From Pseudomonas furukawaii (GTDB lineage Bacteria > Pseudomonadota > Gammaproteobacteria > Pseudomonadales > Pseudomonadaceae), in contig NZ_AP014862.1 of the NCBI RefSeq assembly GCF_002355475.1, positions 3,782,001-3,846,000 of the forward strand: a DNA stretch of 64,000 nt, read 5' to 3'. Under the pieces are notes generated by a model. That model was not told the origin of the DNA, made no database searches, and saw only the letters and a program-made list of their open reading frames with translations. Below, piece by piece: positions 8,296 through 61,543 of the stretch. Each line of letters begins with the position of its first letter. Within the stretch, counting starts at the first letter, position 1. Both the position numbers and the translations under genes were made by a program.

Positions 8296-8337
8296 GTTAG
8301 AGTAGGGCCTTCAGCCACTGAACGGCGAGGACAGGCC

Positions 8338-9669: not shown

Positions 9670-9691
9670 GCCCCACCAAGGAACCTCGCGG

Positions 9692-10756: not shown

Positions 10757-10826
10757 GTGGTAGCGGGAGCGGCCCAGCGCGCCCCGCCAACTCGGAACTG
10801 CATCGCAGCGGGCCGGCGAGGCGTGG

Positions 10827-11504
10827 TCAGATCAGGGCGTTACGGTTGGCGAACTCCACCAGTTCGATCAGGGAGCGGGCGTTGAGCTTGAGCAACAGTC
10901 GGGTCTTGTAGGTGCTGACGGTCTTGTTGCTGATGAACATCTCCTCGGCGATTTCCTTGTTGCTGTAGCCATTGGCGAGGAACTTCAGCACCACCAGTTC
11001 ACGGTCCGACAAGCGCCCGATCAGATCCGCCTCGTCGGGCAGGCCGATATGCCGCTTTCCAGACCGGATCACATCGCTGGGGAAGTAGCTGTAGCCCGAG
11101 AGCACCGCCCGCACGGCGGCGGTCACCTCGGCCAGGTCGCCTTCCTTGCAGACGAACCCTGCGGCACCGGCCTGCATGCAGCGAGTGGCATAGTGGTTGG
11201 GATTCTGTCCGGTGAGGACCAGTACCCGCATGGGCAGGTCCAGGGCGTTGAGGCGGGCGATCACGTCCAGCCCGCCCAGTTTGGGAATGCCGATATCCAG
11301 CACCACCAGGTCGGGCTGATGCTCACGGGCCAGCGCGATGGCGTCGACCCCATTGTCGGTCTCGGCCACTATCTCGTAGCCCTCCCGGTCCAGCAGGAGG
11401 CGCACGGCGAGACGTATCACCGGGTGGTCGTCGACCACCATGACGCGGTAGGCGGATTCGTTCCCGGCCTCGAGAAAATCATCCAGATTGACCAGTTTGC
11501 TCAC
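10827..11504 (-). CDS. RocA2-like NarL/FixJ-family response regulator
   Basis: 225 residues. An unusual 19-residue N-terminal extension precedes a receiver domain (residues 20-135) with the acidic pocket VVDDHP, phospho-acceptor Asp in VVLDIGIP, and Lys in CKEGD. A LuxR-type HTH follows (about 160-222: LSDRELVVLKFLANGYSNKEIAEEMFISNKTVSTYK). The start is GTG with GGGAGAG seven bases upstream. It resembles the RocA/SadR group of P. aeruginosa, and I recall PA3045 (RocA2) at this position. The partner sensor RocS2, adjacent in PAO1, is missing here, so the regulator is a local orphan. Confidence 0.88.
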   Translation of the reverse strand: MSKLVNLDDFLEAGNESAYRVMVVDDHPVIRLAVRLLLDREGYEIVAETDNGVDAIALAREHQPDLVVLDIGIPKLGGLDVIARLNALDLPMRVLVLTGQNPNHYATRCMQAGAAGFVCKEGDLAEVTAAVRAVLSGYSYFPSDVIRSGKRHIGLPDEADLIGRLSDRELVVLKFLANGYSNKEIAEEMFISNKTVSTYKTRLLLKLNARSLIELVEFANRNALI

Positions 11505-11827
11505 GGCTGCTCTCCCTTGGCGCCATTGGAGGCTGCCAAGATAGAGAACGCCATCACGCTGTCGAACCCCGGGACCAGCGTTAAGGAAGGCACCTACCCC
11601 AGCTTGGGCTGTGTCCTACGTGACCGGGCTTTTTTCAACGGGAACGATCCTTTGCATCCAGGGTAATAGTCGCCAAATAACCACCCGGAACACCAAAGAC
11701 CCACGCCTCCGCTACCCTTTTCTCCAGGGAGGATTCCCGCCTTCCCAGGACTCTCCGCACGGCTCGCCAGACGCCCTCGCGACCCGGACATGGCAAATTG
11801 CACGACGCCGTCACCTGCCTCATCTAT
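11505..11827. other. Divergent intergenic region, regulator / HD-GYP gene
   Basis: About 320 bp between the divergent start of the response regulator and the leader hairpin of the HD-GYP gene. An in-frame extension of the HD-GYP frame runs through it, but without a good ribosome site or protein-like composition, so I treat it as non-coding. I saw no convincing sigma-70 or sigma-54 promoter, terminator or repeat. Confidence 0.5.
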
Positions 11828-11864
11828 GCTCCTGTAGCCCCCAGGGACCAGGGGCCAAAGGAGC
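11828..11864 (+). promoter_or_regulatory. SD-sequestering leader hairpin with RsmA/CsrA-like loop
   Basis: The outer stem GCTCCT/AGGAGC (11828-11833 with 11859-11864) and inner stem GCCCC/GGGGC (11837-11841 with 11851-11855) are separated by a symmetric 3x3 internal loop. They close a 9-nt loop, CAGGGACCA. The 3' strand of the outer stem is the Shine-Dalgarno sequence AAAGGAG of the HD-GYP gene. The loop matches the CANGGAN core bound by RsmA/CsrA, and the SD holds a second GGA. Translation is therefore probably controlled post-transcriptionally. Confidence 0.5.
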
Positions 11865-11871
11865 AGCCACA

Positions 11872-14835: not shown

Positions 14836-14884
14836 TGGCGCGACCATGCCCGCCTCGGCCACTCGGGCGGATTCCTTGCGCCTG

Positions 14885-14913
14885 AAACAAGAAAGGCGCC
14901 CCTTGGGGCGCCT
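14885..14913 (-). terminator. Intrinsic terminator of yggL
   Basis: Inverted repeat AGGCGCCCC / GGGGCGCCT (14894-14902, 14905-14913). On the minus strand it is followed by TTCTTGTTTC. It lies 19 bp past the yggL stop; the convergent HD-GYP gene ends at 14835 and may not use it. Confidence 0.75.
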
Positions 14914-14932
14914 CTCTTCACGTCGACGCCTG

Positions 14933-15274
14933 TCAGGCGTTGACGGGATTCTCCGGATACCACACGTCGATCAGCGGGCTCACGGTGTAACCGGCCAGCT
15001 CGGCCTGGCCCTGGCCCAGCCAGGCCTCGACCTGCGCACGCTGCTCAGCGGTCACCGAGCCACGCTTGCCGAGGCAGACGAAACCATAGTCCTCGGAGCC
15101 GATGAAACCGAGGCCATTGCCTTCGATGGCCTGCTCGATGAAGCGCTCGAAGAACACCGATACCGCTTCCGCGTCCAGGCCCTCCTTGTAGCTCAGGGTG
15201 ATCTCGAAACCCAGTTCCTGGAATTCATCGACGCACAGCTTCTTGCGCAGGCGACGGGAGCGATTGGTGGCCAT
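14933..15274 (-). CDS. yggL: YggL family protein (DUF469)
   Basis: 113 residues from the ATG preceded by GAGGAAA; the open frame runs 18 codons further upstream without family resemblance. The basic N-terminus (MATNRSRRLRKKLC) and the compact remainder (ELGFEITLSYKEGL, GSEDYGFVCLGKRGSVT) are characteristic of YggL/DUF469, a small ribosome-associated protein family in gammaproteobacteria. It is divergent from dacB across a 224-bp gap, the arrangement I recall for PA3046-PA3047. Confidence 0.92.
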   Translation of the reverse strand: MATNRSRRLRKKLCVDEFQELGFEITLSYKEGLDAEAVSVFFERFIEQAIEGNGLGFIGSEDYGFVCLGKRGSVTAEQRAQVEAWLGQGQAELAGYTVSPLIDVWYPENPVNA

Positions 15275-15498
15275 GTGGCGTTTCCTCGGCAGTTTTGACG
15301 GGCGGCACTCTAGCAGCTTCCGGCGCAACTTGCCCGCTCGCGAGCGCGCCTGGGTTGCACCGGCAGACGAAATGATCGGCCGACAGGTTCAGTCGCCGCA
15401 GGCTTGCGGCATAATGTTGCGATTTCCCGAACTGCCGTGGGAACACCTGCCATGTCATGCATTTTCTTCACCCGCCCTCGCCTGGAGGGCAATCGCTG

Positions 15499-35719: not shown

Positions 35720-37368
35720 TGACGCGCCTGCTCTGCACCCTCCTTCTCAGCCTGCTGGCCTGTACCCTGCAGGCCGCCGGATTCACCGCCAGCGTGGACC
35801 GCACGCGCCTCAGCGAAGGCGAGACCGTCGAACTGACCCTGGAGTCCTCCGACCCGACCCTCTTCGGCAAGCCGGACCTCGCCCCCCTGGACGGCCAGTT
35901 CGAGGTGCTCGGCACCCGCCAGATCAACCAGCTCGGCACCTTCAACGGCCGCAACGACCGCGCCACGCGCTGGATCATCACCCTGCAACCGAAGCAGACC
36001 GGCTTCGTCACCATCCCCGCCCTGAAACTCGGCGACGTCCACAGCGCCCCCATCACCCTGCACGTGGCGAAGGCGGAGAAGCGCGAAGGGCCGGCCAAGG
36101 GTGCGCTGGCGCCGGTGTTCATCGATGCCAGCCTCGATACCGACAGCGTCTACGTCCAGGCCCAGGCGATCCTCACCCTGCGCATCTACCACTCCGTCTC
36201 CCTCTATGACGACAGCAGCCTCAGCCCGCTGCAGATGGACGACGCCCGGGTGGAGCAACTGGGTGAGCCGCGCACCTACGAGAAGGAGATCAATGGCGTT
36301 CGCCACGGCGTGATCGAGGTGCGCTACGCCGTGTTCCCGCAAAAGAGCGGCGTGCTGCAGATTCCGCCCCAGGTGTTCAGCGCGACCCTCGTGGATGCCG
36401 GCACCCAGGATGGCTACCAGCCCTTCGGGCCGCGCCCCGGCAAGCTGAGCCGGGTGAACTCGCCACGCATTCCCCTGACGGTGAAGCCCAAGCCTGCCGA
36501 CTACCCGGCCGACGCTCCCTGGCTGCCGGCCCGCAACCTGACCCTGACCGAATCCTGGAGCCCGGACCCCAACGCCGTCAGGGCCGGCGACTCGCTGACC
36601 CGCAGCCTGCAGCTGCAGGTGGAGGGGCTTTCCAGCGCGCAGATCCCGCCCCTGCCAGCCACCGAGGCCACCGGGCTGCGGCGCTATCCCGACCAGCCCC
36701 AGCTGAGCAACAGGGTCGGTGAACGCGGCCTCATCGCCAGCCGCGAGGAGCGCGAAGCCCTGGTGCCCACCACCAGCGGCCGGCTGGAGCTGCCCGCCGT
36801 CACCCTGACCTGGTGGAACACCCGTGACGATCGCCTGGAGCGCAGCGTGATTGCCGCCCGCACCCTGGAGGTCGCCATCAATCCCGAACTGGAGCCCGCC
36901 GCCGCCGCGCCGGTGCAGGAAACGGTCGAACGCGCCGGCCACCGGGGCCTGCTCTGGCCCTGGCAGCTGGCCTGCGCGCTGCTGGCGGGCACCACGCTGC
37001 TGGGTTTCGGCCTCTGGTGGCGCGCACGCCGCCAGCCGGCGATCCTCCCCACCGCAGCCACCGGTCCGAGTCCGCGCACGCTGCTGGACGACCTGCGCCG
37101 CGCCTGTCAGTCCAACGACCCCCACGCCACCCGCCAGGCGCTGGACAACTGGGCCCGGCAGCAGCCGGAGACCCTGGCGGACATGGCGGCGCGCTTCGTG
37201 CCGCTGTCCGACGCCATGGACGGGCTCAACGGGGCGCTCTACAGCGAGGCCGGCCAGCACTGGCAGGGCGAGGAGCTGTGGAAAGCCATCCGCGCCCTGC
37301 CCGCCCCCCAGGCCGGCGAACAGGTAGCGGGCGAACCGAGCCAGCTGCCGCCCTTGTATCCACGCTGA
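35719..37368 (+). CDS. BatD-like exported protein
   Basis: 549 residues. A signal peptide (MTRLLCTLLLSLLACTLQAA) is followed by a periplasmic region with repeated Ig-like beta segments (SVDRTRLSEGETVELTLES, FTATV-like repeats), one membrane helix near 412-432 (WPWQLACALLAGTTLLGFGLWW), and a cytoplasmic tail of about 115 residues. This is the BatD/oxygen-tolerance family layout. The start is the ATG overlapping the upstream stop, with AGGAAG seven bases before it; a GTG one codon earlier is possible. Last gene of the operon. Confidence 0.9.
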   Translation: MTRLLCTLLLSLLACTLQAAGFTASVDRTRLSEGETVELTLESSDPTLFGKPDLAPLDGQFEVLGTRQINQLGTFNGRNDRATRWIITLQPKQTGFVTIPALKLGDVHSAPITLHVAKAEKREGPAKGALAPVFIDASLDTDSVYVQAQAILTLRIYHSVSLYDDSSLSPLQMDDARVEQLGEPRTYEKEINGVRHGVIEVRYAVFPQKSGVLQIPPQVFSATLVDAGTQDGYQPFGPRPGKLSRVNSPRIPLTVKPKPADYPADAPWLPARNLTLTESWSPDPNAVRAGDSLTRSLQLQVEGLSSAQIPPLPATEATGLRRYPDQPQLSNRVGERGLIASREEREALVPTTSGRLELPAVTLTWWNTRDDRLERSVIAARTLEVAINPELEPAAAAPVQETVERAGHRGLLWPWQLACALLAGTTLLGFGLWWRARRQPAILPTAATGPSPRTLLDDLRRACQSNDPHATRQALDNWARQQPETLADMAARFVPLSDAMDGLNGALYSEAGQHWQGEELWKAIRALPAPQAGEQVAGEPSQLPPLYPR

Positions 37369-37503
37369 CAACCGCCTTCGCCGCCCCAGGGTGCGCCGTG
37401 CGCAGCGGGAAAACTCGAAGCGCCACGCAGCGCACCCGGCGAATCATCTGCACCACCGCAGGGTGTCGTTACCCGCAGGGCAACGCAGCGGGACTCACCG
37501 CCC

Positions 37504-37536
37504 ATAAAAAAACCGCGGCCAGGGCCGCGGTTCTTT
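37504..37536. terminator. Bidirectional terminator between BatD and the MMPL gene
   Basis: AACCGCGGCC-AG-GGCCGCGGTT (37511-37532), with seven As on the left and TTCTTT on the right, serves both converging transcripts. It lies 15 bp beyond the MMPL stop. The remaining 135 bp back to the batD stop show nothing notable. Confidence 0.87.
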
Positions 37537-37551
37537 CATTGCCTCGATGGA

Positions 37552-39927
37552 TCAGTGGGCCAGCAGCGAACCGCCGACCTTGCCCGCCAGCTTCTCGGGC
37601 TTGATCAGGAAGCGCGCCAGGGCCGGCAGCAGCCAGAGGGCGCCGAACATGTTCCAGAGGAGCATGAAGGTCAGCATCAGGCCCATGTCCGCCTGGAACT
37701 TGATGGCGGAGAAGATCCAGGTGACCACGCCGATGGCCAGGCACAGGCCGGTGAAGAGCACGGCCTTGCCGGTGGACTTCAGGGTCTGGTAGTAGGCCTC
37801 CTGCAGCGGCAGCCCGGCACGCAGGAAGCTTTCCAGGCGGCTGTAGATGTAGATGCCGTAGTCCACGCCGATGCCCACGCCGAGCGCGATCACCGGCAGG
37901 GTGGCCACTTTCACGCCGATGCCGAGGAAGGCCATCAGCGCGTTGCCCAGCACCGAGGTGAGGATCAAGGGCAACACGATGCACAGGGTGGCCGCCACGG
38001 AGCGGAAGGTCAGCAGGCACATCACGGCGACGCAGATGTACACCAGGATCAGGATGGTCAGTTCGGCCTGGGCGATCACCTCGTTGGTGGCCGCCTCGAT
38101 ACCGGCGTTACCCGCCGCCAGCATGAACTCCAGCCCTTCCTTGTTGTGCTCCTTGGCGAACGCCTCGACGGCATCCACCGCGCGGCTCAGGGTCTCGGCC
38201 TTGTGGTCGTTGAGGAACACCAGCACCGGCGCCAGGGAGCAGTCGGAGTTGTACAGGCCTTCGGCGCGGCTGATGGAGTTGTTCAGCACGTCCTGGTTGC
38301 GGGACAGGGTTTCCCACTTCAGGTTGCCTTCGTTCATCCCTTTGATCACCTGCTTGGAGACGGTGACCATGGAGATGGCGGATTGCACGCCCGGCGTGTT
38401 CTCCATCTTCCACATCAGCTCGTCCACCGGCGCCAGGGTGTCATGGGTGGAGCAGCCTTCGGGGCCGGTCTTGACCATGACCACCAGGACGTCGGAGCTG
38501 GTGGAGTAGTTGTTGATGATGAAGTTGTTGTCCTGGTTGTAGCGCGAGTCCGGGCGCAGTTCCGGAGCCCCCTGGTCGAGGTCGCCGATCTTCAGGTTCT
38601 GGCTGTACCAGAGGCCGCCACCGAAGGCGATCAGGGCGATCACCACGGAAATGGGCGCCACCACCGGATGGGCGAAATTGGACAGCAGGCGCCAGAAGCG
38701 ATGATCGCGCTGGGCGTCGCGCTTGCTGCGCTCGATGGCCTTCTTGCTGATGCCGATGTAGGAGATGGCAACCGGCAGCAGGATCAGGTTGGTGAAGACG
38801 ATGACACCCACGCCGATGGAGGCGCCGATGGCCAGCTCGCGGATCACGCCGATATCGATGACCAGCAGGGTGATGAAGCCCACGGCGTCCACCAGGATGG
38901 CGATCATGCCGGGCAGGAACAGCTGGCGGAAGGTGCGTCGCGCCGCCGTCAGGGCATTGTCGGAATCACTGGATTGCAGGGCGATACCGTTGATCTTCTG
39001 CACGCCATGGGAGATGCCGATGGCGAAGATCAGGAAGGGCACCAGCATGGAATAGGGGTCCAGGCCGAACCCCGCCAGATGCATCAGGCCCAGTTGCCAG
39101 ATCACCGCGATCAGGGTGGTGGACAGCACGGAGATGGTGCTGCGGATGCACCAGCTGAACCAGTAGAGCAGCACCAGGGTGATCAGGAAGGCGATGCCGA
39201 AGAAGGCCACCACCATCATCAGGCCATCGATCAGGTCGCCCACCTTCTTCGCGAAGCCGACGATGTGGATCTTCACGTTGGCGTTCTGAAGCTGGTACTT
39301 GTCGCGGATCTTCTCTTCCAGCTCATGGGAGAACTGGCGATAGTCCAGCTTCATCAGCTTGCCCTGGTCGCTGGGGTCCGGGTAGGACTCCAGCAGCGGC
39401 ACGTCGATGATGCTGGACTTGAAGTTGTTGGCCACCAGGCGACCGATCTGGCCGGACTTGAGCACGTTGTTGCGCAGCTCTTCCAGGCTCGCCTCGGAAC
39501 CGTCGTAGGTCTGCGGGATCACTTCGCCACCGGCGAAGCCTTCCTCGGTCACCTCGGTCCAGCGCACGCTGGGGCTCCACAGGGACTTCAGGCCGGAGCG
39601 ATCGACACCCGGAATGTAGAAGACCTCGTCGTGGATCTGACGCAGGGTCTCCATGTAGTCCTTGTTGAAGATGTCGCCGTCCTTGGCTTCCACCGAGATG
39701 CGCACGGTGTTGCCCAGGTTGGCCAGGTCGTTGCGGTGCTCGATCATCTTCTGGATGTAGGGATGATGGAGCGGGATCATCTTCTCGAAGCTGGTGGACG
39801 GCCGGACCTGCAGCGCCTGCCAGGCCAGGAAGAGGGTCGTCAGCAGACAGAGAATGATCACGGTCGGCCGGTTGTTGAAGATCAGGCGTTCCAGGAAGGT
39901 CGCCTTGTCCTGGTGATGGGTACTCAT
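37552..39927 (-). CDS. MMPL/RND-superfamily lipid- or hydrophobe-type exporter
   Basis: 791 residues, inner membrane. Duplicated RND layout: a TM helix at 24-44, a large periplasmic loop (to about 225), five to six helices (about 230-400), then again a TM (about 425-445), a second periplasmic loop (to about 615) and a final cluster of helices with VIALGVGIGVDYGIYIYSR. This conserved GxGxDY motif in the fourth helix of the half carries the proton-relay Asp of MMPL/HpnN-like transporters. There is no membrane-fusion protein or TolC partner nearby. It follows the YCF48 gene by 20 bp, and the pair forms one transcript downstream of the DUF1329 terminator. Confidence 0.92.
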   Translation of the reverse strand: MSTHHQDKATFLERLIFNNRPTVIILCLLTTLFLAWQALQVRPSTSFEKMIPLHHPYIQKMIEHRNDLANLGNTVRISVEAKDGDIFNKDYMETLRQIHDEVFYIPGVDRSGLKSLWSPSVRWTEVTEEGFAGGEVIPQTYDGSEASLEELRNNVLKSGQIGRLVANNFKSSIIDVPLLESYPDPSDQGKLMKLDYRQFSHELEEKIRDKYQLQNANVKIHIVGFAKKVGDLIDGLMMVVAFFGIAFLITLVLLYWFSWCIRSTISVLSTTLIAVIWQLGLMHLAGFGLDPYSMLVPFLIFAIGISHGVQKINGIALQSSDSDNALTAARRTFRQLFLPGMIAILVDAVGFITLLVIDIGVIRELAIGASIGVGVIVFTNLILLPVAISYIGISKKAIERSKRDAQRDHRFWRLLSNFAHPVVAPISVVIALIAFGGGLWYSQNLKIGDLDQGAPELRPDSRYNQDNNFIINNYSTSSDVLVVMVKTGPEGCSTHDTLAPVDELMWKMENTPGVQSAISMVTVSKQVIKGMNEGNLKWETLSRNQDVLNNSISRAEGLYNSDCSLAPVLVFLNDHKAETLSRAVDAVEAFAKEHNKEGLEFMLAAGNAGIEAATNEVIAQAELTILILVYICVAVMCLLTFRSVAATLCIVLPLILTSVLGNALMAFLGIGVKVATLPVIALGVGIGVDYGIYIYSRLESFLRAGLPLQEAYYQTLKSTGKAVLFTGLCLAIGVVTWIFSAIKFQADMGLMLTFMLLWNMFGALWLLPALARFLIKPEKLAGKVGGSLLAH

Positions 39928-39947
39928 CGAAACTCTCCGCCTTGTTC

Positions 39948-41036
39948 TTATAGTTGGCCCAGCTCGGCGCCGGTCGGCGACGCTACGCGTACACCGCCCT
40001 GTCCCACCAGGATCAGGTTGCCCTTGTCGTCAGCGGTGACAGCGGCCAGCGACAGTCGATCGCTGCGGTTCACCACCTTGAAGCTCCGGCCGCCATCGGT
40101 GCTCTTCAGCACGCTGCCACCGTGGCCGACCACCACCAGGCTGCCGTCGGGCAGCAGGGTGCCACCGGACAGTCCGAACTCCAGCTCGCCGTTGCCGGCG
40201 CTCAGGGGAATGGTCTCCCAGGTGGCGCCGAAGTCGGCGGAGCGGAACAGATGGCCACGCAGGCCATAGGCGATCACGCCACCGGTCTCGCCGGTGCCGA
40301 GCACGCCGAACAGCGAACCCTCGTAGGGGCCTTCGAGGCGCTCCCAGGTTTCGCCCCAGTCGGCGGAGCGGAACATGCTGCCCATCTCGCCGACCACGAA
40401 CAGGCCGGAATCCTTCACGGTGGCGATGGCATTGAGGTGGTACTGATCTTCGTTGTCCAGGCGGTCGCTGACGTCTTCCCAGTTCCGGCCGCCGTCTCGG
40501 GTGCTCAGCAGGGCGCCGTAGGCACCGACGGCAAAGCCGGTGTCGGCGTCCTTGAACCAGATGTCCAGCAGCGGCGCTTCGCGCTCCAGGTCCTGGAACT
40601 GCAGGGCCCAGGTGGCACCGCCATCCTCGCTGGCGAGGATCTGCGCGTCATGGCCGACGGCCCAGCCTTTCTTGTCATCGAGGAAAAAGACGGCGGTCAG
40701 CATCTGGCGACTGGGCACCTTGGCCTGGGTCCAGGACTTGCCGTCGTCATCGGAGTAGAGGATGTGGCCACGATCACCGACGGCCACCAGGCGCTTGCCG
40801 GCGTGGGCGACGTCGAGCAGAAGGCTGCTCACCGCCTTGGGTGATTCGATGGCGAAGACCGGCGCATCGGGCGACGCGGCGGACACGGAAACAGGCGCGA
40901 CGGCTGCGGCAAGGATGGAGAGCACACTGAACAGCGAGAGCGCTTTGGCCAGCGGCGAGTGGAAGCGGAACGCCGGCGTGTGGAGAGCCTCCACGGTGAG
41001 GCCGGACCGGGTGCGCCGCATGACGGGCTCACTCAT
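39948..41036 (-). CDS. YCF48/BNR-repeat beta-propeller protein, exported
   Basis: 362 residues. An N-terminal hydrophobic segment (about 30-53, ending SVSAA) acts as signal peptide or anchor. Six or more BNR-type blade motifs of the form S-x-D-x-G-x-x-W follow: SDDDGKSW, SEDGGATW, TRDGGRNW, SADWGETW, SADFGATW, STDGGRSF. This predicts a periplasmic beta-propeller like the YCF48/HCF136 photosystem assembly factor, here more likely an accessory or assembly factor for the RND transporter. The SD GGGGAAAGG is strong; an internal ATG at codon 6 is an alternative start. Confidence 0.9.
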   Translation of the reverse strand: MSEPVMRRTRSGLTVEALHTPAFRFHSPLAKALSLFSVLSILAAAVAPVSVSAASPDAPVFAIESPKAVSSLLLDVAHAGKRLVAVGDRGHILYSDDDGKSWTQAKVPSRQMLTAVFFLDDKKGWAVGHDAQILASEDGGATWALQFQDLEREAPLLDIWFKDADTGFAVGAYGALLSTRDGGRNWEDVSDRLDNEDQYHLNAIATVKDSGLFVVGEMGSMFRSADWGETWERLEGPYEGSLFGVLGTGETGGVIAYGLRGHLFRSADFGATWETIPLSAGNGELEFGLSGGTLLPDGSLVVVGHGGSVLKSTDGGRSFKVVNRSDRLSLAAVTADDKGNLILVGQGGVRVASPTGAELGQL

Positions 41037-41259
41037 ACACCTTTCCCCTTATTGTTATAGGTGGAGCTGCCCAGGCAGGCAGCGAGCTAATCCTAGCCAG
41101 CTTTGAAAACGCTGCACAATCAGCGGGACGTTATGTTTTGTTAAGCGCAGGTGGCGCTCTGTAACAGGCTCCGCGAGCGGCAAGGCGCCTCGGAGCCGGC
41201 AGCCGACCCCTGATCCGGATGCAAGGGGGTCGGGCCGCAGATGCCCCGGCTCCAAATAA

Positions 41260-41290
41260 GAAGGCCGCTACAGGGTAGCGGCCTTCTTTT
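41260..41290 (-). terminator. Intrinsic terminator after the DUF1329 gene
   Basis: Perfect 12-bp stem GAAGGCCGCTAC / GTAGCGGCCTTC with a 3-nt loop, followed on the minus strand by TTATTT and on the plus strand by TTTT. It lies just past the DUF1329 stop, so the DUF1302-DUF1329 pair probably ends here. The YCF48-MMPL pair would then be transcribed by its own promoter or by read-through. The rest of the 272-bp gap shows no further clear signal. Confidence 0.88.
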
Positions 41291-41308
41291 CCTTGGGCGG
41301 GGTATCGA

Positions 41309-42676
41309 TCAGCGGGTGCCGCGGCGACGCAGGGCGGACGGCTTGAAGTAGCCATCGTCCGACACGGCCTGGGTGAAGTCGATGGTGCTCGGCTCTTCGT
41401 TATCCAGGTTCTGCACGTGGTAGCGACGGGCCTGCAGGTCGTGGAACACGTCCAGCGCGGACCAGGTGGTCGGCAGATCGTAGTAGTTCTTCAGGTAGGC
41501 CACCGAGACGCGCCACAGCTCGCCACGACCGTCGTACTGGTCCACCACCGCGGCTTGCCAGCTGTCCTCGTCGAGGAACAGGGTGCGCTTGGAGTAGATG
41601 TGGCGAGCGCCCGACTTCAGGGTGCCTTCCACGACCCACACGCGGTGCAGTTCGTTACGGGTGACAGCCGGATTCAGGTGGCCAGGCTGCAGCAGTTCCT
41701 CGTACTTAACCTCAGGGCTGGAGACCTTGTAGTTGTTGTACGGGATGTAGATTTCCTTCTTGCCCACCAGCTTCCAGTCGTAGCGGTCCGGGGCACCGTT
41801 GAACATGTCGGTGTCGTCGGCGGTACGCAGGCCGTCGGCGGCGGCGATCGGGGTGTCGTAGGCCAGGTTCGGCGCACGGCGCACGCGGCGCTGGCCGGCG
41901 TTGTAGCCCCAGGCCTGGCGGGGTTCCTTCACCTGGTCCAGGGTCTCGTGAACCAGGGTCGCGCCACCGGCCAGACGCGCCGGGCTCTTGGTGAAGGACA
42001 GGTAGTAGAAGAGGATGTTGTTCAGGTCGGCGTACGAACCCTGCGGGTTGTAGTACTTGAACAGGGCTTCCTGCTGCGAGGTCACCAGGGAGTAGTCACC
42101 GTTGCGCTGCACGGCCACTTCGGAGGCGCGACGCACGATGTAGGTGCCGCGATAGCGGGTGACGTGGTTCCACAGGGCTTCCACGCCGCTCTGCGGAATC
42201 GGGAACGGGATGCCGCCGTAGGCGTCGGCGAAACCGTTGCCGCCGTCGAGCAGCTTGGCGGTGGTGGCGTTCTTGACGGTGTTGTCATAGACCCACTGCG
42301 GCGCGGAACCGGAGCGGCGGGTCTGGTAGACCGGCATCTGGAAGCTGTCGGGATAGGCGTTGAACAGGGCGATCTGGCCGGGGGTCAGGTTGGCCTTGTA
42401 CTGGTCCAGGTTGGCCTTGGTGATGGTGAACAGCGGCTTGTCTTCCGGGAACGGATCGACGTGGTGCTTGCCGGACTTGTAGCCAGCGGGGGCCTGGGTG
42501 ATGCCACCGTTCCACTCGGGAATGGTGCCTGCGGCGTTGCCGGCCTTCTCGGCGCCGAAGGGGGTCAGGCTGGCGCCCAGCTTGGCCGCGTCCTGGGCAG
42601 AAACCAGGGCCAGGGCGTTGCTGGCGGTAAGCGCCAGGGCTACTGCGGCGCTAATCAGCGAAAGCTTTTTCAGCAT
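41309..42676 (-). CDS. DUF1329 exported protein
   Basis: 455 residues with a clean signal peptide (MLKKLSLISAAVALALTASNALA). The mature protein is beta-rich and aromatic; typical DUF1329 pieces are GTIPEWNGGITQAP near residue 50, RRAPNLAYDTP, RYDWKLVGKKEIYIPYNNYK and RKRTLFLDEDSW-like SKRTLFLDEDSWQAA. The function is unknown; I recall the fold being compared with lipoprotein/lipid carriers such as LolA/LolB, but could not verify this. It almost always accompanies a DUF1302 gene, as here (60 bp downstream of it). GGAG precedes the ATG by seven bases. Confidence 0.92.
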   Translation of the reverse strand: MLKKLSLISAAVALALTASNALALVSAQDAAKLGASLTPFGAEKAGNAAGTIPEWNGGITQAPAGYKSGKHHVDPFPEDKPLFTITKANLDQYKANLTPGQIALFNAYPDSFQMPVYQTRRSGSAPQWVYDNTVKNATTAKLLDGGNGFADAYGGIPFPIPQSGVEALWNHVTRYRGTYIVRRASEVAVQRNGDYSLVTSQQEALFKYYNPQGSYADLNNILFYYLSFTKSPARLAGGATLVHETLDQVKEPRQAWGYNAGQRRVRRAPNLAYDTPIAAADGLRTADDTDMFNGAPDRYDWKLVGKKEIYIPYNNYKVSSPEVKYEELLQPGHLNPAVTRNELHRVWVVEGTLKSGARHIYSKRTLFLDEDSWQAAVVDQYDGRGELWRVSVAYLKNYYDLPTTWSALDVFHDLQARRYHVQNLDNEEPSTIDFTQAVSDDGYFKPSALRRRGTR

Positions 42677-42702
42677 GAGGAGTCTCCGTGATGAGTCTGT
42701 AT

Positions 42703-42722
42703 CGGGCGCCTTCAGGCGCCCG
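42703..42722 (-). other. Intercistronic hairpin between DUF1302 and DUF1329
   Basis: CGGGCGCC-TTCA-GGCGCCCG, an 8-bp GC stem with a tetraloop and no T tract, in the 60-bp gap between the two genes. It could stabilise the upstream mRNA or attenuate transcription, giving unequal amounts of the two products. Confidence 0.5.
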
Positions 42723-42736
42723 TATTGTTCTTGTGC

Positions 42737-44773
42737 TTAGAAGGAGTACTTGACGTTGAAGCCGATGTTGTCGCGGTCACGAACCGAGTTGTTCTGGCCG
42801 CCGCCGAAGAACTCGGTGTACTGCAGCTCGGCTTCCAGGCTGTTCAGGTAGCTGGCCTTGACGCCCAGGGTGTAGGCCTTGCGACCTTCGATGAAGTTGC
42901 CGGTCTGGTAGGAGTTGCCCTCGAAGTCGTCCTTGTAGACGACGTAGGGGGAGATGTTCACGCCCGCGTAGACGTCGTTCCAGGTACCGGACAGCAGCAG
43001 GGTGTAGCCGTAGGCGTTCTTGTTGACCTGGTCGTCACGATCGCCGCCGGACACGTAGGAGTTGTTGCCACGACCGGAGTAGTAGCGCTTCTGCCCGTTG
43101 AAGGCGGTGTACTGCAGGTCGCTGCCGCGCAGGTGCTCGGACGCCAGCTCGGCCACGCCGAACAGGGAGTCGAAGGACAGGGACGGGCCGAAGTTATAGA
43201 TGGTGCCCAGGGAGGTGTTGAAGGCCTCCACGCGCTCGTAGTTATGGATCGAATCGCCCAGCTGGACATTCTGCCCGCCGATGTTCACCACGCCGCCAGC
43301 CGACAGTTGCGGCGCCTGGAGCAGCAGGTCACCCAGCAGGTCGTTGGTGGTGGCGACGCCGATGGGCAGGTTCGGACGGTAGGCCAGTTCGCCGAACACC
43401 GAGGCGTTGCCCACGGTGGTGTTGAAGCTGAGGCCGTACATGCGGATGTCTTCGACGTACTCGCGCTGGGCCTGGACGGCATTCGCCACGTCGATGGTCG
43501 CCAGGCCGCCGGCAGCGGTGGTGGCGGCGGCGGTGAGCGCGTTGGAGTACGCCTGGGCCAGCGCCGGGTTGAGGGCCGGGTTGGCCAGCACGGCCTGCAG
43601 CTGGGGAACGCTGATTCCTGCCCCGGCAGCGACGGCCTGCTGCACCTGGGGTGCGAGGACGGTAGCGGCCTGGCCGGCGATCTGGGCCAGGTCGAGACCG
43701 GCGTAGTCACCCAGGTTGGCCGAGATGGTCGGCTCCTTGGCGTGGTAGTTCACGAAATAGAAGCCGAACTCGGTGGAGTTCAATTCTTCCGCGATATAGC
43801 GGAAGGCGACGCCGAACTGGCCATCGTTCTTCGCGTTGATATCAGGACCGACGGAAGCCACCTTGATCACGCCATTGGCGTCCACGGTGCGGCCGCCTTG
43901 CAGGCCGCCCACGCCCAGGGCGCTGAAGCCGCTGTAGAGGCCGGCCAGCGGCTGCAGGCGCGGCTGGGTCGAGTAAGCGGTGTTGCCGCCATCGGCGAAC
44001 AGGTCGGTTTCCGAGTAGTAGGTGCCCACCGGGTCGATGGCCGACTCCTTCCAGTTCCACTGGTAGAAGGTCTCCATGGACAGGTTCTCGGTCAGGCCGA
44101 GGTTGAAGCTCAGGGCCTCCACCGGCACCAGCACTTCCTTCAGCTCCGAGCCCGGCAGGCGGAACTTGGCGGCGTCCACCGGGTTGGTGGTGTTCACGCC
44201 GCCCCGGTAGAAGACGCCCTCGCCCCAGTTGAACACCTGCTTGCCGATACGGCCGGTGACCGGCATGTCGGCCACGTCCCAGTTGCCATAGAGGTAGGCG
44301 TCGAGGATCTGCGCATCGCGACCGGCCTTGTGGCGGGTCTCGTAGGTGAAGCTGTCATCCTTGGGGAAGTTCTGGCTCGGCTGGCCCGGGTTGTTGTTGT
44401 CGTAGTAGTCGTTGCGCTTGTCCATGATCTGGGTGTCATAGAAAGCGGTACCGCGCACGAACAGGCCGTAGTTCTTGTAGGTGGCTTCCAGGTCGGAGGT
44501 GATCTTGTACACCTCGGAAACCAGCCCGGTGTCGAAGTTGCGGTTGCCGTCGTTGGTATTGATGTCGTCGTTGGACTTGTCCCGGCCCTGGACGCGCCAC
44601 AGCTGGCCGTAGGAGACGGTGGTATCGAGGGAACCGGAAATTTCGTCGTTGGCGAAGCTGAACTCCACCGCCTGGGCCTGAGCCGCCACCAGCAGGGGGA
44701 GGATGCCGGCGAAGGCGAAGCCTGCCTTGGCCGGCGCAAAACGCAATAGGGGCTTACGGGACTTGAGTTCCAT
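42737..44773 (-). CDS. DUF1302 outer-membrane protein
   Basis: 678 residues. The signal peptide ends AAQAQA (about residue 35). The mature protein starts with VEFSFANDEISGSLDTTVSYG and is rich in amphipathic beta strands (e.g. YTYETR, GRIGKQVFNWGEG). It ends in an aromatic residue (GFNVKYSF), as outer-membrane barrels do. Residues about 358-440 are different: an Ala/Leu/Val-rich, predicted helical segment (AGQAATVLAPQVQQAVAAGA) that a simple barrel would not need. First gene of the DUF1302-DUF1329 operon, with GGAG before the ATG and a strong sigma-54 site about 165 bp upstream. Confidence 0.92.
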   Translation of the reverse strand: MELKSRKPLLRFAPAKAGFAFAGILPLLVAAQAQAVEFSFANDEISGSLDTTVSYGQLWRVQGRDKSNDDINTNDGNRNFDTGLVSEVYKITSDLEATYKNYGLFVRGTAFYDTQIMDKRNDYYDNNNPGQPSQNFPKDDSFTYETRHKAGRDAQILDAYLYGNWDVADMPVTGRIGKQVFNWGEGVFYRGGVNTTNPVDAAKFRLPGSELKEVLVPVEALSFNLGLTENLSMETFYQWNWKESAIDPVGTYYSETDLFADGGNTAYSTQPRLQPLAGLYSGFSALGVGGLQGGRTVDANGVIKVASVGPDINAKNDGQFGVAFRYIAEELNSTEFGFYFVNYHAKEPTISANLGDYAGLDLAQIAGQAATVLAPQVQQAVAAGAGISVPQLQAVLANPALNPALAQAYSNALTAAATTAAGGLATIDVANAVQAQREYVEDIRMYGLSFNTTVGNASVFGELAYRPNLPIGVATTNDLLGDLLLQAPQLSAGGVVNIGGQNVQLGDSIHNYERVEAFNTSLGTIYNFGPSLSFDSLFGVAELASEHLRGSDLQYTAFNGQKRYYSGRGNNSYVSGGDRDDQVNKNAYGYTLLLSGTWNDVYAGVNISPYVVYKDDFEGNSYQTGNFIEGRKAYTLGVKASYLNSLEAELQYTEFFGGGQNNSVRDRDNIGFNVKYSF

Positions 44774-44937: not shown

Positions 44938-44955
44938 TGCAACCATGGTGCCAAG
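44938..44955 (-). promoter_or_regulatory. Near-consensus sigma-54 promoter of the DUF1302 operon
   Basis: On the minus strand the site reads TTGGCACCATGGTTGCA, matching YTGGCACG-N4-TTGCW at all positions but one. GG and GC are at the required 12-bp spacing. It points at the DUF1302 gene, with transcription expected to start near 44928. This is the best sigma-54 site I found in the window. Confidence 0.75.
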
Positions 44956-45048
44956 TCACTCGCAGTCGTCAAAAAACAACCCCGGTTCCGGCGACGAAAA
45001 ATTGTCAAACAAGTGACTGATCATCCACTGACCAATAACCGATTTTCT

Positions 45049-45202: not shown

Positions 45203-45235
45203 AAAAAAGTGTTACCGGCGCTGACCGGTAACACT
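45203..45235 (-). terminator. Intrinsic terminator of pepN
   Basis: AGTGTTACCGG-CGCTGA-CCGGTAACACT, an 11-bp perfect stem followed by TTTTTTGTT on the minus strand. It lies 57 bp past the pepN stop and also insulates the DUF1302 regulatory region. Confidence 0.92.
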
Positions 45236-45292
45236 TCGGGGAAAGGCGGTGCGGAGGGGTGGACGACCCGCCTGGACGGGCCGTCGGCAGGG

Positions 45293-47950
45293 TCAGGCGA
45301 GGCTCTTGCTGACGACCTCGAACACGTCACTGGACAGCTCGCCCGAGGCGAGGATGCGCTCCAGCTCGGCCTTCATCAGTTGCTGGCGACCCGCGTCGTA
45401 CTTGCGCCAGCGGGTGAGCGGCGCCAACTGGCGGGAGGCGATCTGCGGGTTGAAGGCGTTGAGGGTGATCACATGGTCGGCCAGGAAGCGATAGCCCTCG
45501 CCATCGGCCCGGTGGAAGTTCACCAGGTTCTGGTTGGCGAAGGCGCCGATCAGGGCGCGGACCTTGTTGGGATTCTTCAGGGTGAACGCCGGATGCTCCA
45601 TCAGCGCCTTGACCCGCTCCAGCCCACCCGGCAGCCCGCAGCCGGCCTGCACGCTGAACCACTGGTCCATGACCAGGGGATCGTCCTTGAAGTACTCGGC
45701 GAAGCGCGCCAGGGCATCGGCCTTCTCCCGCTCGAAGCCGGAATTCACGAGGACGGCCAGGGCGGACAGGCGCTCGGTCATGTTGTCGCACGCGTCGAAC
45801 TGCTCCAGGCAGGCGTCCAGCACTTCCCCGCGACCGCTCTGCATCAGGTAGGACAGGGCGATGTTCTGCAGGGTACGCCGGGCGATATGGTCCGCTTCGG
45901 CCTTGTAGGCCGTGTCACGGGAAATCGCCCGGTTGGCCTGGTAGCGCGCCAGCAGCGGCTGGAACAGGGCCTGGCCGATGGACTGGCGAGCGAATTCGCG
46001 AGCGGCGTGGATGGCGTCCACATCAGCCACGTCGCTGATCTCGGTGAGGTAGGCCTCGCTGGGCAGCGAGAGCATTTCCGCCACCATGGCCTGATCCAGG
46101 GTGGCGTCCTCCAGCAGGGTGCGGAAGGCATCCACCAGGCGCTGGTCGAGCACCAGGGCTTCGCCACGCTGGTACTGGCCGACCAGCTCCTGCAGCACCT
46201 GCACGGAGAGCTGCTGGCCCGCTTCCCAGCGGTTGAATCCGTCGGAATCGTGCTGCATCAGGAACATCAGCTGGTCGCGGCTGTAGGGGAAGTTCAGCTT
46301 CACCGGCGCGGAGAAGCCGCGCAGCAGCGACGGCAGCGGTTTTTCGGCGATGCCGACGAAGGTGAAGGTCTGCTCGGCCTCGGTGACCGAGAGCACCCGA
46401 TTACCGCCCTGGGCCTCGGCCTCGCCAGCCAGGCGCAGTGGGAGGTCACGGCCGGCGGCGTCCAGCAGGCCCAGCTCGACCGGGATGACGAAGGGCTGCT
46501 TCTCGGCCTGCCCCGGGGTGGCCGGACAGCTCTGGCGGAAAGTCAGGCTGTAGGTCTGGGCGGCGGCGTCGAAGGCTTCCTCGACGCTCAGGCGCGGGGT
46601 GCCGGCCTGGCTGTACCAGCGCTTGAACTGGCTGAGGTCGATGCCGTTGGCGTCTTCCATGGCCTTGACGAAGTCGTCGCAGGTCACGGCCTGGCCGTCA
46701 TGGCGCTCGAAGTACAGGTCGGTGCCCTTGCGGAAGCCCTCGGCGCCCAGCAGGGTGTGGATCATGCGCACCACTTCCGAGCCCTTCTCGTAGACGGTCA
46801 GGGTGTAGAAGTTGGAGATCTCGATGAAGGAATCCGGGCGCACCGGGTGGGCCATCGGACCGGCGTCCTCGGCGAACTGGTTGGTCCGCAGGAAGGCCAC
46901 GTCCTCGATGCGCTTGACGGTGCGCGAGTTCATGTCGGCGGAGAACTCCGCGTCGCGGAACACCGTGAAGCCTTCCTTAAGGGACAGCTGGAACCAGTCA
47001 CGGCAGGTCACGCGATTGCCGGACCAGTTATGGAAGTACTCGTGGGCGACCACCGCCTCCACCCGCTGGTGGGCGGCGTCGGTGGCGGTTTCGGCCTTCG
47101 CCAGCACGCAGCTGGAGTTGAAGATGTTGAGGCCCTTGTTCTCCATGGCGCCCATGTTGAAATCGTTCACGGCGACGATCATGAAGATGTCTAGGTCATA
47201 TTCGCGACCATAGACCTCCTCGTCCCAGCGCATGGACTTCTTCAGGCTGTCCATGGCGTGCTGGACCTTGTCGATGTTCTCCGGCTCGACGTAGATGCGC
47301 AGGGCCACCTCGCGCTGGCTCATGGTGGTGAAGCTGTCTTCGACGCACCAGAGGTCGCCGGCCACCAGGGCGAAGAGGTAGGCCGGTTTCTTGAAGGGAT
47401 CTTCCCAGGTGGCCCAGTGGCGGCCGCCCTCCTCCGACCCGCTGGCCACCGGGTTGCCGTTGGACAGCAGCACCGGGTAGCGATGCTGCTCCGCACTCAC
47501 CGTGGTGGTGAAGGCGCTCATCACGTCGGGGCGGTCGAGGTAATAGGTGATCTTGCGGAAGCCTTCGGCCTCGCACTGGGTGCAGAACATCTTGCCGGAC
47601 TTGTACAGGCCCTCCAGCGCGGTGTTGGTCTCCGGGTGGATGCGCACCGTGCTGTCCAGGGTGAAGGTCGGCGCGACCGGCTGCAGGCTGAGGTGGCTGT
47701 CGTCCACCTGGTAATCGGCGGCCCCCAGCTCACGGTCATCCATGGACAGCGACAGCAGCTCCAGTTGCTGGCCATCCAGCACCAGGGGCGGCAGGCCGGC
47801 GCCGGCCTCGGGGTTGCGGCGCATCACCAGCTGGGCGTGGACCAGCGTGTGGTCCTCGTACAGCTCGAAGGTCAGGTTGGTCTCGTCGATCAGGTAGTCG
47901 GGTACCTGATAGTCCTTGAGGTAGATGACTTTCGGTTGCTCGGTGCGCAT
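45293..47950 (-). CDS. pepN: Aminopeptidase N (M1 family)
   Basis: 885 residues; cytosolic zinc metallopeptidase removing N-terminal amino acids from peptides. The M1 landmarks are intact: substrate-anchoring GAMENKG (about residue 262), the zinc site HEYFHNW followed 18 residues later by the third ligand Glu (LKEGFTVFRD), and the conserved Tyr region in YEKGSEVVRM. Length matches E. coli-type PepN (870-890). The SD is weak (GAAGAGAC). It is the last gene on this strand before its terminator and is separated from DUF2797 by 112 bp. Confidence 0.96.
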   Translation of the reverse strand: MRTEQPKVIYLKDYQVPDYLIDETNLTFELYEDHTLVHAQLVMRRNPEAGAGLPPLVLDGQQLELLSLSMDDRELGAADYQVDDSHLSLQPVAPTFTLDSTVRIHPETNTALEGLYKSGKMFCTQCEAEGFRKITYYLDRPDVMSAFTTTVSAEQHRYPVLLSNGNPVASGSEEGGRHWATWEDPFKKPAYLFALVAGDLWCVEDSFTTMSQREVALRIYVEPENIDKVQHAMDSLKKSMRWDEEVYGREYDLDIFMIVAVNDFNMGAMENKGLNIFNSSCVLAKAETATDAAHQRVEAVVAHEYFHNWSGNRVTCRDWFQLSLKEGFTVFRDAEFSADMNSRTVKRIEDVAFLRTNQFAEDAGPMAHPVRPDSFIEISNFYTLTVYEKGSEVVRMIHTLLGAEGFRKGTDLYFERHDGQAVTCDDFVKAMEDANGIDLSQFKRWYSQAGTPRLSVEEAFDAAAQTYSLTFRQSCPATPGQAEKQPFVIPVELGLLDAAGRDLPLRLAGEAEAQGGNRVLSVTEAEQTFTFVGIAEKPLPSLLRGFSAPVKLNFPYSRDQLMFLMQHDSDGFNRWEAGQQLSVQVLQELVGQYQRGEALVLDQRLVDAFRTLLEDATLDQAMVAEMLSLPSEAYLTEISDVADVDAIHAAREFARQSIGQALFQPLLARYQANRAISRDTAYKAEADHIARRTLQNIALSYLMQSGRGEVLDACLEQFDACDNMTERLSALAVLVNSGFEREKADALARFAEYFKDDPLVMDQWFSVQAGCGLPGGLERVKALMEHPAFTLKNPNKVRALIGAFANQNLVNFHRADGEGYRFLADHVITLNAFNPQIASRQLAPLTRWRKYDAGRQQLMKAELERILASGELSSDVFEVVSKSLA

Positions 47951-61174: not shown

Positions 61175-61251
61175 TGGCGCAGCGGACGGGACTCGAACCC
61201 GCGACCCCCGGCGTGACAGGCCGGTATTCTAACCGACTGAACTACCGCTGC
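61175..61251 (-). tRNA. tRNA-Asp (GTC), distal copy
   Basis: 77 nt including encoded CCA. Acceptor stem GCAGCGG/CCGCTGC, D-arm AGTTCAGTCGGTTAGAAT, anticodon loop CTGTCAC with anticodon GTC, TPsiC arm GGGTTCGAGTCCC. Cloverleaf complete. Identical in sequence to the copy at 61356-61432. Confidence 0.97.
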
Positions 61252-61355
61252 GTGTCGGCTTGGACTTGCGTCCGGTACAACGAACTGATGTCTGGCGCAG
61301 CAGCCTGATGGCTTCTGCCGCCTCATGCCGGAGCGAACCCCCGCATGGGAAATAA

Positions 61356-61432
61356 TGGCGCAGCGGACGGGACTCGAACCCGCGACCCCCGGCGTGACAG
61401 GCCGGTATTCTAACCGACTGAACTACCGCTGC
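61356..61432 (-). tRNA. tRNA-Asp (GTC), middle copy
   Basis: 77 nt including CCA, identical to the copy at 61175-61251, anticodon GTC. The short stretch 5' of each copy is also similar (GTCGGC...GGACTTGCGTCC versus GTCGGC...GGACTTTCGTCC on the plus strand), pointing to tandem duplication of tRNA plus flank. Confidence 0.97.
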
Positions 61433-61467
61433 GCGTCGGCCGGACTTTCGTCCGTATCTCGCAAGAT

Positions 61468-61543
61468 TGGTGGGTGGTGACGGGATCGAACCGCCGACCC
61501 TCTGCTTGTAAGGCAGATGCTCTCCCGGCTGAGCTAACCACCC
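61468..61543 (-). tRNA. tRNA-Val (TAC)
   Basis: 76 nt including CCA. Acceptor GGGTGGT/ACCACCC, D-arm TAGCTCAGCCGGGAGAGCA, anticodon loop CTTACAA (anticodon TAC), TPsiC arm GCGGTTCGATCCCGT. First gene of the Val-Asp-Asp operon. Confidence 0.97.

What the first reader, a model, noticed from the sequence alone, without database searches (positions are those of the whole stretch)
37552..44773. Four-gene envelope module DUF1302-DUF1329-YCF48-MMPL as a candidate undescribed system
Seen: an outer-membrane DUF1302 protein, an exported DUF1329 protein, an exported six-blade BNR/YCF48 protein and an MMPL/RND transporter, all on one strand and flanked by terminators. Known: these families are individually uncharacterised or only loosely assigned, and DUF1302/DUF1329 genes usually travel together. 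Inference: the four span inner membrane, periplasm and outer membrane and could move a hydrophobic compound or lipid, with YCF48 as assembly factor. From memory, PAO1 has cprRS near this position instead, so the block looks accessory.
Basis: partly seen in the sequence, partly recalled or inferred. Interest (0 to 1): 0.78.

Follow-up and report, generated by a model that had tools for sequence, protein, structure and literature searches.

The report
AmeABCD-type envelope hydrophobe transporter
Four neighbouring Pseudomonas genes code for the parts of an already described but poorly understood machine thought to move oily molecules across the cell envelope; what looks new is that the DNA treats it as two separately controlled halves, and one inner-membrane half may serve several outer-membrane halves.

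Summary
The four genes are real and at the stated coordinates: DUF1302, DUF1329, YCF48 and MMPL, all on the minus strand. The system is not undescribed. The same families in the same order are AmeABCD of Castellaniella defragrans (2018). PP_0765/0766 with PP_2018/2019 of P. putida were proposed as a transport system in 2024, and a benzene-linked relative in 2026.

Co-occurrence is far beyond chance: all 6 YCF48 loci of this genome lie in complete cassettes, and in 143 genomes of the class YCF48 and DUF1329 co-occur (Fisher p 2e-18). The block is not simply accessory: YCF48-MMPL beside pepN is widespread in the family, and PA3079 of P. aeruginosa, listed as an SSD-domain protein, is probably its counterpart (inferred).

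New here: two predicted units. DUF1302-DUF1329 has a perfect sigma54 promoter; a terminator follows; YCF48-MMPL has its own conserved promoter. Three genomes with one such MMPL carry 8 to 10 DUF1329 genes, mostly in pairs without a local MMPL: perhaps one engine serving several ports, in line with published P. putida data. Verdict: a member of a known kind, with a testable new idea.

The parts
42737..44773 (-). DUF1302 outer-membrane protein, 678 aa, AmeA-like (port)
   Evidence: PF06980 E 1.3e-162; signal peptide-like N terminus, C-terminal Phe
41309..42676 (-). DUF1329 exported protein, 455 aa, AmeB-like, LolA-like C-terminal part (periplasmic carrier)
   Evidence: PF07044 E 7e-165, LolA_like PF17131 E 1.2e-6 (28.7 bits, cut-off 30); PF17131 at E up to 0.01 in 16 of 18 DUF1329 proteins
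39948..41036 (-). YCF48/PSII_BNR beta-propeller protein, 362 aa, AmeC-like
   Evidence: PF14870 E 1.6e-26; PDB Ycf48 structures, best E 3.9e-20
37552..39927 (-). MMPL/RND inner-membrane transporter, 791 aa, AmeD-like (engine)
   Evidence: PF03176 E 4e-32; HAE3 TIGR00921 best NCBIfam hit, below its cut-off; S306-H307-Q310 and D689-Y690-Y693 invariant in 55 of 55 proteins, window included (numbering)
44938..44953 (-). sigma54 (-24/-12) promoter in front of DUF1302
   Evidence: 11 of 11 consensus positions; 11 of 11 also in 11 of 22 other pepN-site loci, at least 10 in 14 of 22; shuffles reach 10 in 0.29%
45013..45028 (-). palindromic box about 60 bases upstream of the -24 element, possible activator site
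   Evidence: similar boxes in close relatives, seen by eye; only perfect match to the pattern in the genome; no regulon found
41254..41291 (-). intrinsic terminator between DUF1329 and YCF48
   Evidence: hairpin in 16 of 24 other pair-bearing loci by a crude rule without a shuffle control, 11 of 24 with energy at or below -15
41129..41145 (-). conserved box (TTAACAAAA core) upstream of YCF48
   Evidence: core in 73 of 76 upstream regions, window included
41090..41119 (-). sigma70-type promoter of YCF48-MMPL (TTGTGC, 18 nt, TAGGAT)
   Evidence: box plus promoter arrangement with an 18-nt spacer in 74 of 78 named loci; pattern fitted after seeing the k-mers, no control
37504..37531 (-). intrinsic terminator after MMPL
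45206..45237 (-). terminator after pepN, upstream border of the block

Best explanation
The block codes for an AmeABCD-type trans-envelope transporter for hydrophobic or amphiphilic compounds. MMPL is the proton-driven inner-membrane engine. YCF48 is a periplasmic propeller that assembles or couples it. DUF1329 is a LolA-like periplasmic carrier. DUF1302 is the outer-membrane port. At this site it is two transcription units: a sigma54-switched port-and-carrier pair, and an engine with its own sigma70-type promoter. Shown by sequence here: the families, the co-occurrence and the synteny; the two promoters and the terminator are predictions backed by conservation. Inferred: the roles of the parts, lipid-like or acyl-ester-like substrates, and outward movement (extraction from the inner membrane towards the outer membrane; direction about 0.55).
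For: Family assignments. In the own genome all 6 YCF48 loci lie in four-gene cassettes. Of 32 YCF48 genes from 23 other genomes, 26 have MMPL nearby and 16 all four. In 143 genomes YCF48 and DUF1329 are both present in 20, one only in 6, neither in 117. The MMPL keeps an Asp-Tyr pair in its second half in 55 of 55. Other cassettes sit beside catabolic genes and on plasmids. Published: the ameABCD deletion lowers monoterpene tolerance and raises Nile Red accumulation in CCCP-treated cells; PP_0765/0766/2018/2019 are reported essential on Tween 20; an MMPL-LolA protein and a porin rise on C28 alkane in Thalassolituus.
Against: No experiment on this locus, and no structure could be predicted. HAE3 membership is below its curated cut-off (155.7 against 351.9 bits). 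LolA likeness is weak for the window protein (28.7 bits, cut-off 30) and the best solved relative has E 0.0029. Nile Red efflux kinetics were almost identical in wild type and mutant. A growth requirement on Tween 20 fits uptake as well as export. The P. aeruginosa DUF1302 protein PA3923 has been tied to laminin binding and biofilm instead. Two of 22 DUF1329-bearing genomes of the class sample have no PF14870 match (G034, G081).
Confidence: 0.66

Rival explanations
1. The same machine works inward: DUF1302 admits fatty-acyl or hydrocarbon substrates, DUF1329 carries them over the periplasm, and MMPL/YCF48 helps deliver them to the inner membrane for catabolism.
For: Cassettes and pairs sit beside catabolic genes and, at L018 and L260, an AMP-binding (acyl-CoA ligase-type) gene; P. 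putida needs the genes on Tween 20; the benzene cluster authors leave direction open.
Against: RND/MMPL pumps of known direction export (established knowledge, recalled); ameABCD loss raises dye accumulation in de-energised cells and monoterpene toxicity.
Confidence: 0.25
2. The system serves surface biology: it builds or loads the outer membrane or vesicles (nanopods), or positions a surface esterase, and the substrate effects are indirect.
For: phnL (YCF48) disruption cuts vesicle and nanopod formation in Delftia; DUF1302 and DUF1329 proteins are listed among those found in Delftia nanopods; PA3923 and laminin/biofilm phenotypes; PP_0765/0766 were earlier suspected of a link to hydrolase activity.
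Against: Different catabolic neighbours of many of the copies point to individual compounds.
Confidence: 0.2
3. Merely positional neighbours: DUF1302-DUF1329 and YCF48-MMPL are unrelated functions that happen to abut.
For: Two promoters and a terminator separate them; the pair is missing at this site in 48 of the 63 named loci that show pepN.
Against: 6 of 6 own YCF48 loci and 16 of 32 YCF48 genes elsewhere lie in four-gene sets; genome-level Fisher p 2e-18; shared P. putida phenotypes.
Confidence: 0.04

Closest known systems
AmeABCD of Castellaniella defragrans (PMC6394551; parts 1-3 of 5 read)
   Same: Same four families in the same order: DUF1302, DUF1329/LolA superfamily, COG4447 YCF48-like, HAE3-type RND.
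   Different: AmeABCD lies in a monoterpene island and is monoterpene-induced. The window set lies between pepN and Bat genes and is split by a predicted terminator and second promoter.
P. putida PP_0765/PP_0766 + PP_2018/PP_2019 (PMC10866462, section 12 read)
   Same: PP_0765/0766 are DUF1302/DUF1329, PP_2018 periplasmic, PP_2019 an efflux transporter; shared Tween 20 phenotype and AlphaFold contacts. PP_2018/2019 beside pepN (PP_2017, recalled) would be the window's engine.
   Different: There the pair and the engine are at separate loci. The own-genome relative of PP_0765/0766 is probably the 5.16 Mb pair (L018), not the window pair (inferred from neighbours; the PP sequences were not read).
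'Nanopod' cluster of anaerobic benzene degraders (PMC13101534, passages) and phn island of Delftia Cs1-4 (PMC3958437 and PMC3110197, passages)
   Same: DUF1329, YCF48 and MMPL with a porin-like protein (benzene cluster); DUF1302, DUF1329 and YCF48 (Delftia).
   Different: Extra genes, other substrates; sequences not compared here.
Hopanoid transporter HpnN and sterol transporter BstA (RND/MMPL)
   Same: Same superfamily; hydrophobic cargo (recalled).
   Different: Scores far below their curated cut-offs; no DUF1302/DUF1329 partners known to me (recalled).
HAE1 tripartite pumps (AcrAB-TolC type)
   Same: RND engine with periplasmic and outer-membrane partners.
   Different: No membrane fusion protein or TolC-type family among the four Pfam assignments.

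Membership tests
AmeABCD-type tetrapartite RND cassette | outer-membrane DUF1302 protein with signal peptide | tested here: met
   PF06980 E 1.3e-162; N terminus and final Phe read by eye; localisation not measured
AmeABCD-type tetrapartite RND cassette | periplasmic DUF1329 of the LolA superfamily | tested here: met
   PF07044 E 7e-165; LolA_like in 16 of 18 relatives at E up to 0.01, window protein itself just under that family's cut-off
AmeABCD-type tetrapartite RND cassette | periplasmic YCF48/COG4447 protein | tested here: met
   PF14870 E 1.6e-26; PDB Ycf48 best E 3.9e-20
AmeABCD-type tetrapartite RND cassette | RND transporter of the HAE3 family | tested here: inconclusive
   TIGR00921 is the best NCBIfam hit (E 1.4e-45) but 155.7 bits against a cut-off of 351.9
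AmeABCD-type tetrapartite RND cassette | gene order A-B-C-D on one strand | tested here: met
AmeABCD-type tetrapartite RND cassette | one co-expressed cassette | tested here: inconclusive
   sequence predicts two units: sigma54 promoter, internal terminator, second promoter; no RNA data
AmeABCD-type tetrapartite RND cassette | AmeD lineage in a tree | not tested
   AmeD sequence not obtained; only other relatives were treed
AmeABCD-type tetrapartite RND cassette | tolerance of hydrophobic compounds | not testable with these tools
   needs mutants
Hopanoid transporter HpnN | curated model score | tested here: not met
   65.8 bits against 751.85 (TIGR03480)
Sterol transporter BstA | curated model score | tested here: not met
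   22 bits against 1400 (NF045600)
Photosystem II factor Ycf48 | curated equivalog score | tested here: not met
   88.9 bits against 326 (NF010237)
HAE1 tripartite efflux pump | membrane fusion protein and TolC-type channel in the block | tested here: not met
   no such family among the four proteins

The most novel reading that the evidence does not exclude
Hub-and-ports transport: a single, separately promoted YCF48-MMPL engine, found beside pepN in most of the pseudomonad loci examined, is shared by several separately regulated DUF1302-DUF1329 port-carrier pairs. Each pair would bring its own cargo and its own control (sigma54 here, MalT-type LuxR regulators elsewhere), so pairs are the interchangeable specificity parts. 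The window is the site where one pair sits beside the hub.
Probability: 0.4. Interest if true: 0.72.

Novelty: new member of a known kind. Interest (0 to 1): 0.45.

Why it matters
DUF1302, DUF1329 and bacterial YCF48-like proteins are mostly unnamed; this genome has 12, 13 and 6 loci of them. Placing them in one envelope transport system would explain many unknown genes in hydrocarbon, lipid and aromatic degraders and their plasmids. If one engine really serves several ports, it is a modular arrangement unlike classical RND pumps, where the inner-membrane pump sets specificity, and it can be tested by comparing engine and pair mutants in a laboratory strain.

Tried and rejected
Rejected: 'undescribed system' (papers). 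Rejected: accessory island by synteny; base composition gives no clear sign of an island. Rejected: PsrA-type operator upstream of YCF48 (0 of 76).

Led nowhere: a genome scan for the palindrome upstream of the sigma54 promoter gave 12 sites against 3 for the reversed control, but five identical sites look like 16S rRNA (recalled), leaving no regulon. The cprRS claim could not be tested for want of a named P. aeruginosa chromosome; 10 of the predicted proteins downstream of MMPL in L240, L036, L041 and L039 were scanned and no kinase/regulator pair was among them. Sequence searches of solved structures found nothing useful for DUF1302 or, with the single protein, for DUF1329. Sigma54 scores in front of 11 other own pairs and cassettes: one reaches 10 of 11 (L027), two reach 9 (L018, L020), eight are 5 to 8; shuffles reach 9 or more in 3.5%, so this promoter type is not shown for the other pairs. 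The first MMPL residue numbering was off by 19 and was corrected. The statement in PMC13101534 that a DUF1329 deletion impaired phenanthrene growth was not found in the paper it cites (no hit for the locus number or for '1722'). The first P. putida fitness paper (DOI recalled) is not held.

Full report
WHAT IS THERE. Four minus-strand genes fill 44773-37552: DUF1302 (678 aa), DUF1329 (455 aa), YCF48/PSII_BNR (362 aa), MMPL (791 aa), each confirmed by Pfam. pepN lies upstream (45293-47950) and BatD/BatB-type genes lie downstream on the other strand (the BatB name is mine, only BatD was scanned).

MORE THAN CHANCE. The genome (6.24 Mb) holds 13 DUF1329 and 12 DUF1302 genes. PF14870 rings at six places, and each is in a cassette with MMPL, DUF1329 and DUF1302: the window, L023, L024, L026, L027 (order changed) and L028. 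Six more DUF1302-DUF1329 pairs and one lone DUF1329 show no YCF48 or MMPL hit in the 20 kb fetched around them (PF14870 and PF03176 places). In a draw of 143 genomes of the class, PF14870 (E at most 1e-6) is in 24 and PF07044 (E at most 1e-20) in 22; both in 20, only PF14870 in 4 (G055, G120, G147, G148), only PF07044 in 2 (G034, G081) (Fisher 1.8e-18, or 9.6e-18 without the own genome). I fetched all 32 distinct YCF48 genes listed for the 23 other positive genomes. MMPL is nearby at 26 of 32 and all four genes at 16 of 32. Misses: L181, L185, L190, L198, L199 and L201 have no MMPL (some are short contigs); L170 lacks DUF1302; L175 lacks DUF1329; eight more (L186, L187, L188, L191, L192, L196, L197, L200) have MMPL but no full set.

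ALREADY DESCRIBED. AmeABCD of Castellaniella defragrans has the same four families in the same order; its deletion lowers monoterpene tolerance and raises Nile Red accumulation in CCCP-treated cells, though real-time efflux was almost identical (PMC6394551, parts 1-3 of 5 read). In P. putida, PP_0765/0766 (DUF1302/DUF1329) share a Tween 20 phenotype with PP_2018/2019, and AlphaFold contacts led the authors to propose a transport system (PMC10866462, section 12). A 'Nanopod' cluster with DUF1329, YCF48 and MMPL is highly expressed in benzene degraders (PMC13101534, passages). Disruption of a YCF48 gene, phnL, lowers vesicle formation in Delftia (PMC3958437, passage). In Thalassolituus an MMPL protein with a LolA-like domain and a neighbouring porin rise on C28 alkane (PMC6304351, passages). 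Literature searches made.

NOT SIMPLY ACCESSORY. In the best 80 of 588 named relatives of the MMPL, YCF48 is directly upstream in 80 of 80, pepN upstream in 63 of 80 (70 had at least 9 kb upstream; 7 of those lacked pepN), and the pair in 15 of 80, always with pepN. In the family sample, 94 of 119 genomes have the MMPL at E at most 1e-200 and 25 do not. Of 20 loci that I picked from those genomes, 16 show pepN and 8 show both genes of the pair; L251 shows DUF1329 alone. PA3079 of P. aeruginosa is listed as an SSD-domain protein (PMC11987610, one passage); SSD is a name used for the membrane domain of this transporter class (recalled). With cprRS recalled as PA3077-3078, PAO1 probably has the engine beside cprRS, not cprRS instead of it. 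I could not read that chromosome.

TWO UNITS. In front of DUF1302 lies a perfect -24/-12 element, 44953-44938: 11 of 11 positions in the window and in 11 of 22 other pair-bearing loci, at least 10 in 14 of 22; the other eight score 7 or less or have no candidate. Shuffles reach 10 in 0.29% and 11 never; 0 of 78 engine upstream regions reach 10. Behind DUF1329 lies a terminator (41291-41254): a strong hairpin in the window and in five of five close relatives, and by a crude rule in 16 of 24 pair-bearing loci, 11 of 24 at or below -15 (one of the five, L035, fails that rule). In front of YCF48 lie a conserved box (73 of 76) and a sigma70-type promoter with an 18-nt spacer; the arrangement is found in 74 of 78 named loci, most of which have no local pair.

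ONE ENGINE, MANY PORTS. DUF1329 genes number 4 to 19 in each of 19 named genomes. In six genomes I counted MMPL relatives at E at most 1e-30: 1 in P. alcaligenes MRY13-0052, 1 in Pseudomonas sp. BMS12 and 1 in P. subflava, against 8, 10 and 10 DUF1329 genes; the own genome has 6 against 13. The count is not lopsided everywhere: P. putida 31800 has 4 against 4 and P. citri 3 against 4. Of 20 DUF1329 sites fetched from the three single-engine genomes (of 25 outside the pepN site, by the counts), 17 are DUF1302-DUF1329 pairs with no engine hit in the 15-16 kb fetched and 3 are lone DUF1329. Some stand-alone pairs have a MalT-type LuxR regulator next door: own L018 and L020, and L260, L261 and L262 of BMS12. 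In the DUF1329 tree of 74 proteins the window pair falls with the other pepN-site pairs plus two copies at other places (L133, L138); the larger stand-alone clade (22 rows), which holds P. putida 31800's copy, is separate and groups with full cassettes of other families, with some support values below 95. So stand-alone pairs plausibly lost their own engine. Together with the published P. putida phenotypes this is the hub-and-ports idea. It remains unproven: stand-alone pairs might work without any engine, and G034 and G081 have DUF1329 without a PF14870 match.

SPREAD. Four of the five other own engines pair with a plasmid engine in the MMPL tree (L023-L207, L024-L209, L026-L204, L027-L206; the fifth, L028, is next to L023-L207; quick method). 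The plasmid search gave 40 records; of 8 regions opened, 6 are annotated with all four genes, several beside catabolic genes; L202 shows only YCF48-MMPL at the start of the record and L203 only MMPL.

MECHANISM. The MMPL keeps S306-H307-Q310 in the first half and D689-Y690-Y693 in the second in 55 of 55 proteins (numbering corrected). The Asp-Tyr pair resembles the proton relay of MmpL3 (recalled), so a proton-driven pump with one acidic relay is likely. DUF1329 resembles LolA-like carriers, weakly. Direction and cargo are inferred, not shown.

VERDICT. A member of a known, poorly understood kind; not an undescribed system. The sigma54/sigma70 split and the engine-to-port ratio are the new, testable parts; I did not search the literature for either of these two points by name.

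Noticed in passing
L255 (unnamed family genome G207), 8326-15467: The YCF48-MMPL engine is duplicated in tandem beside pepN; several genomes of that genus show a second MMPL at 67-68% identity.
   Followed up: no
L027 and plasmid locus L206: A divergent cassette with changed order (DUF1329-DUF1302-MMPL-YCF48); the own copy lies beside TetR and AraC regulators, the plasmid copy between two phytanoyl-CoA dioxygenase genes. A similar set is tabled for a crude-oil P. aeruginosa isolate in PMC7145413 (passage).
   Followed up: partly
L021, L267, L276, L279: A lone DUF1329 gene without DUF1302 in four genomes; its partner is unknown.
   Followed up: no
L187, L196, L200: MMPL and YCF48 with only a weak DUF1329-like protein and no detected DUF1302: possibly a more distant version of the system.
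   Followed up: no
P. aeruginosa PA3080 (literature): A PA3080 transposon mutant was reported with reduced killing of worms, adherence and swarming (PMC2714965, passages); whether PA3080 is the YCF48 gene was not checked.
   Followed up: no
window 37000-38500: Cumulative GC skew turns from falling to rising at the junction of the Bat genes and this block, probably just the change of coding strand.
   Followed up: no
window 61175-61543: Cluster of two tRNA-Asp and one tRNA-Val genes.
   Followed up: no
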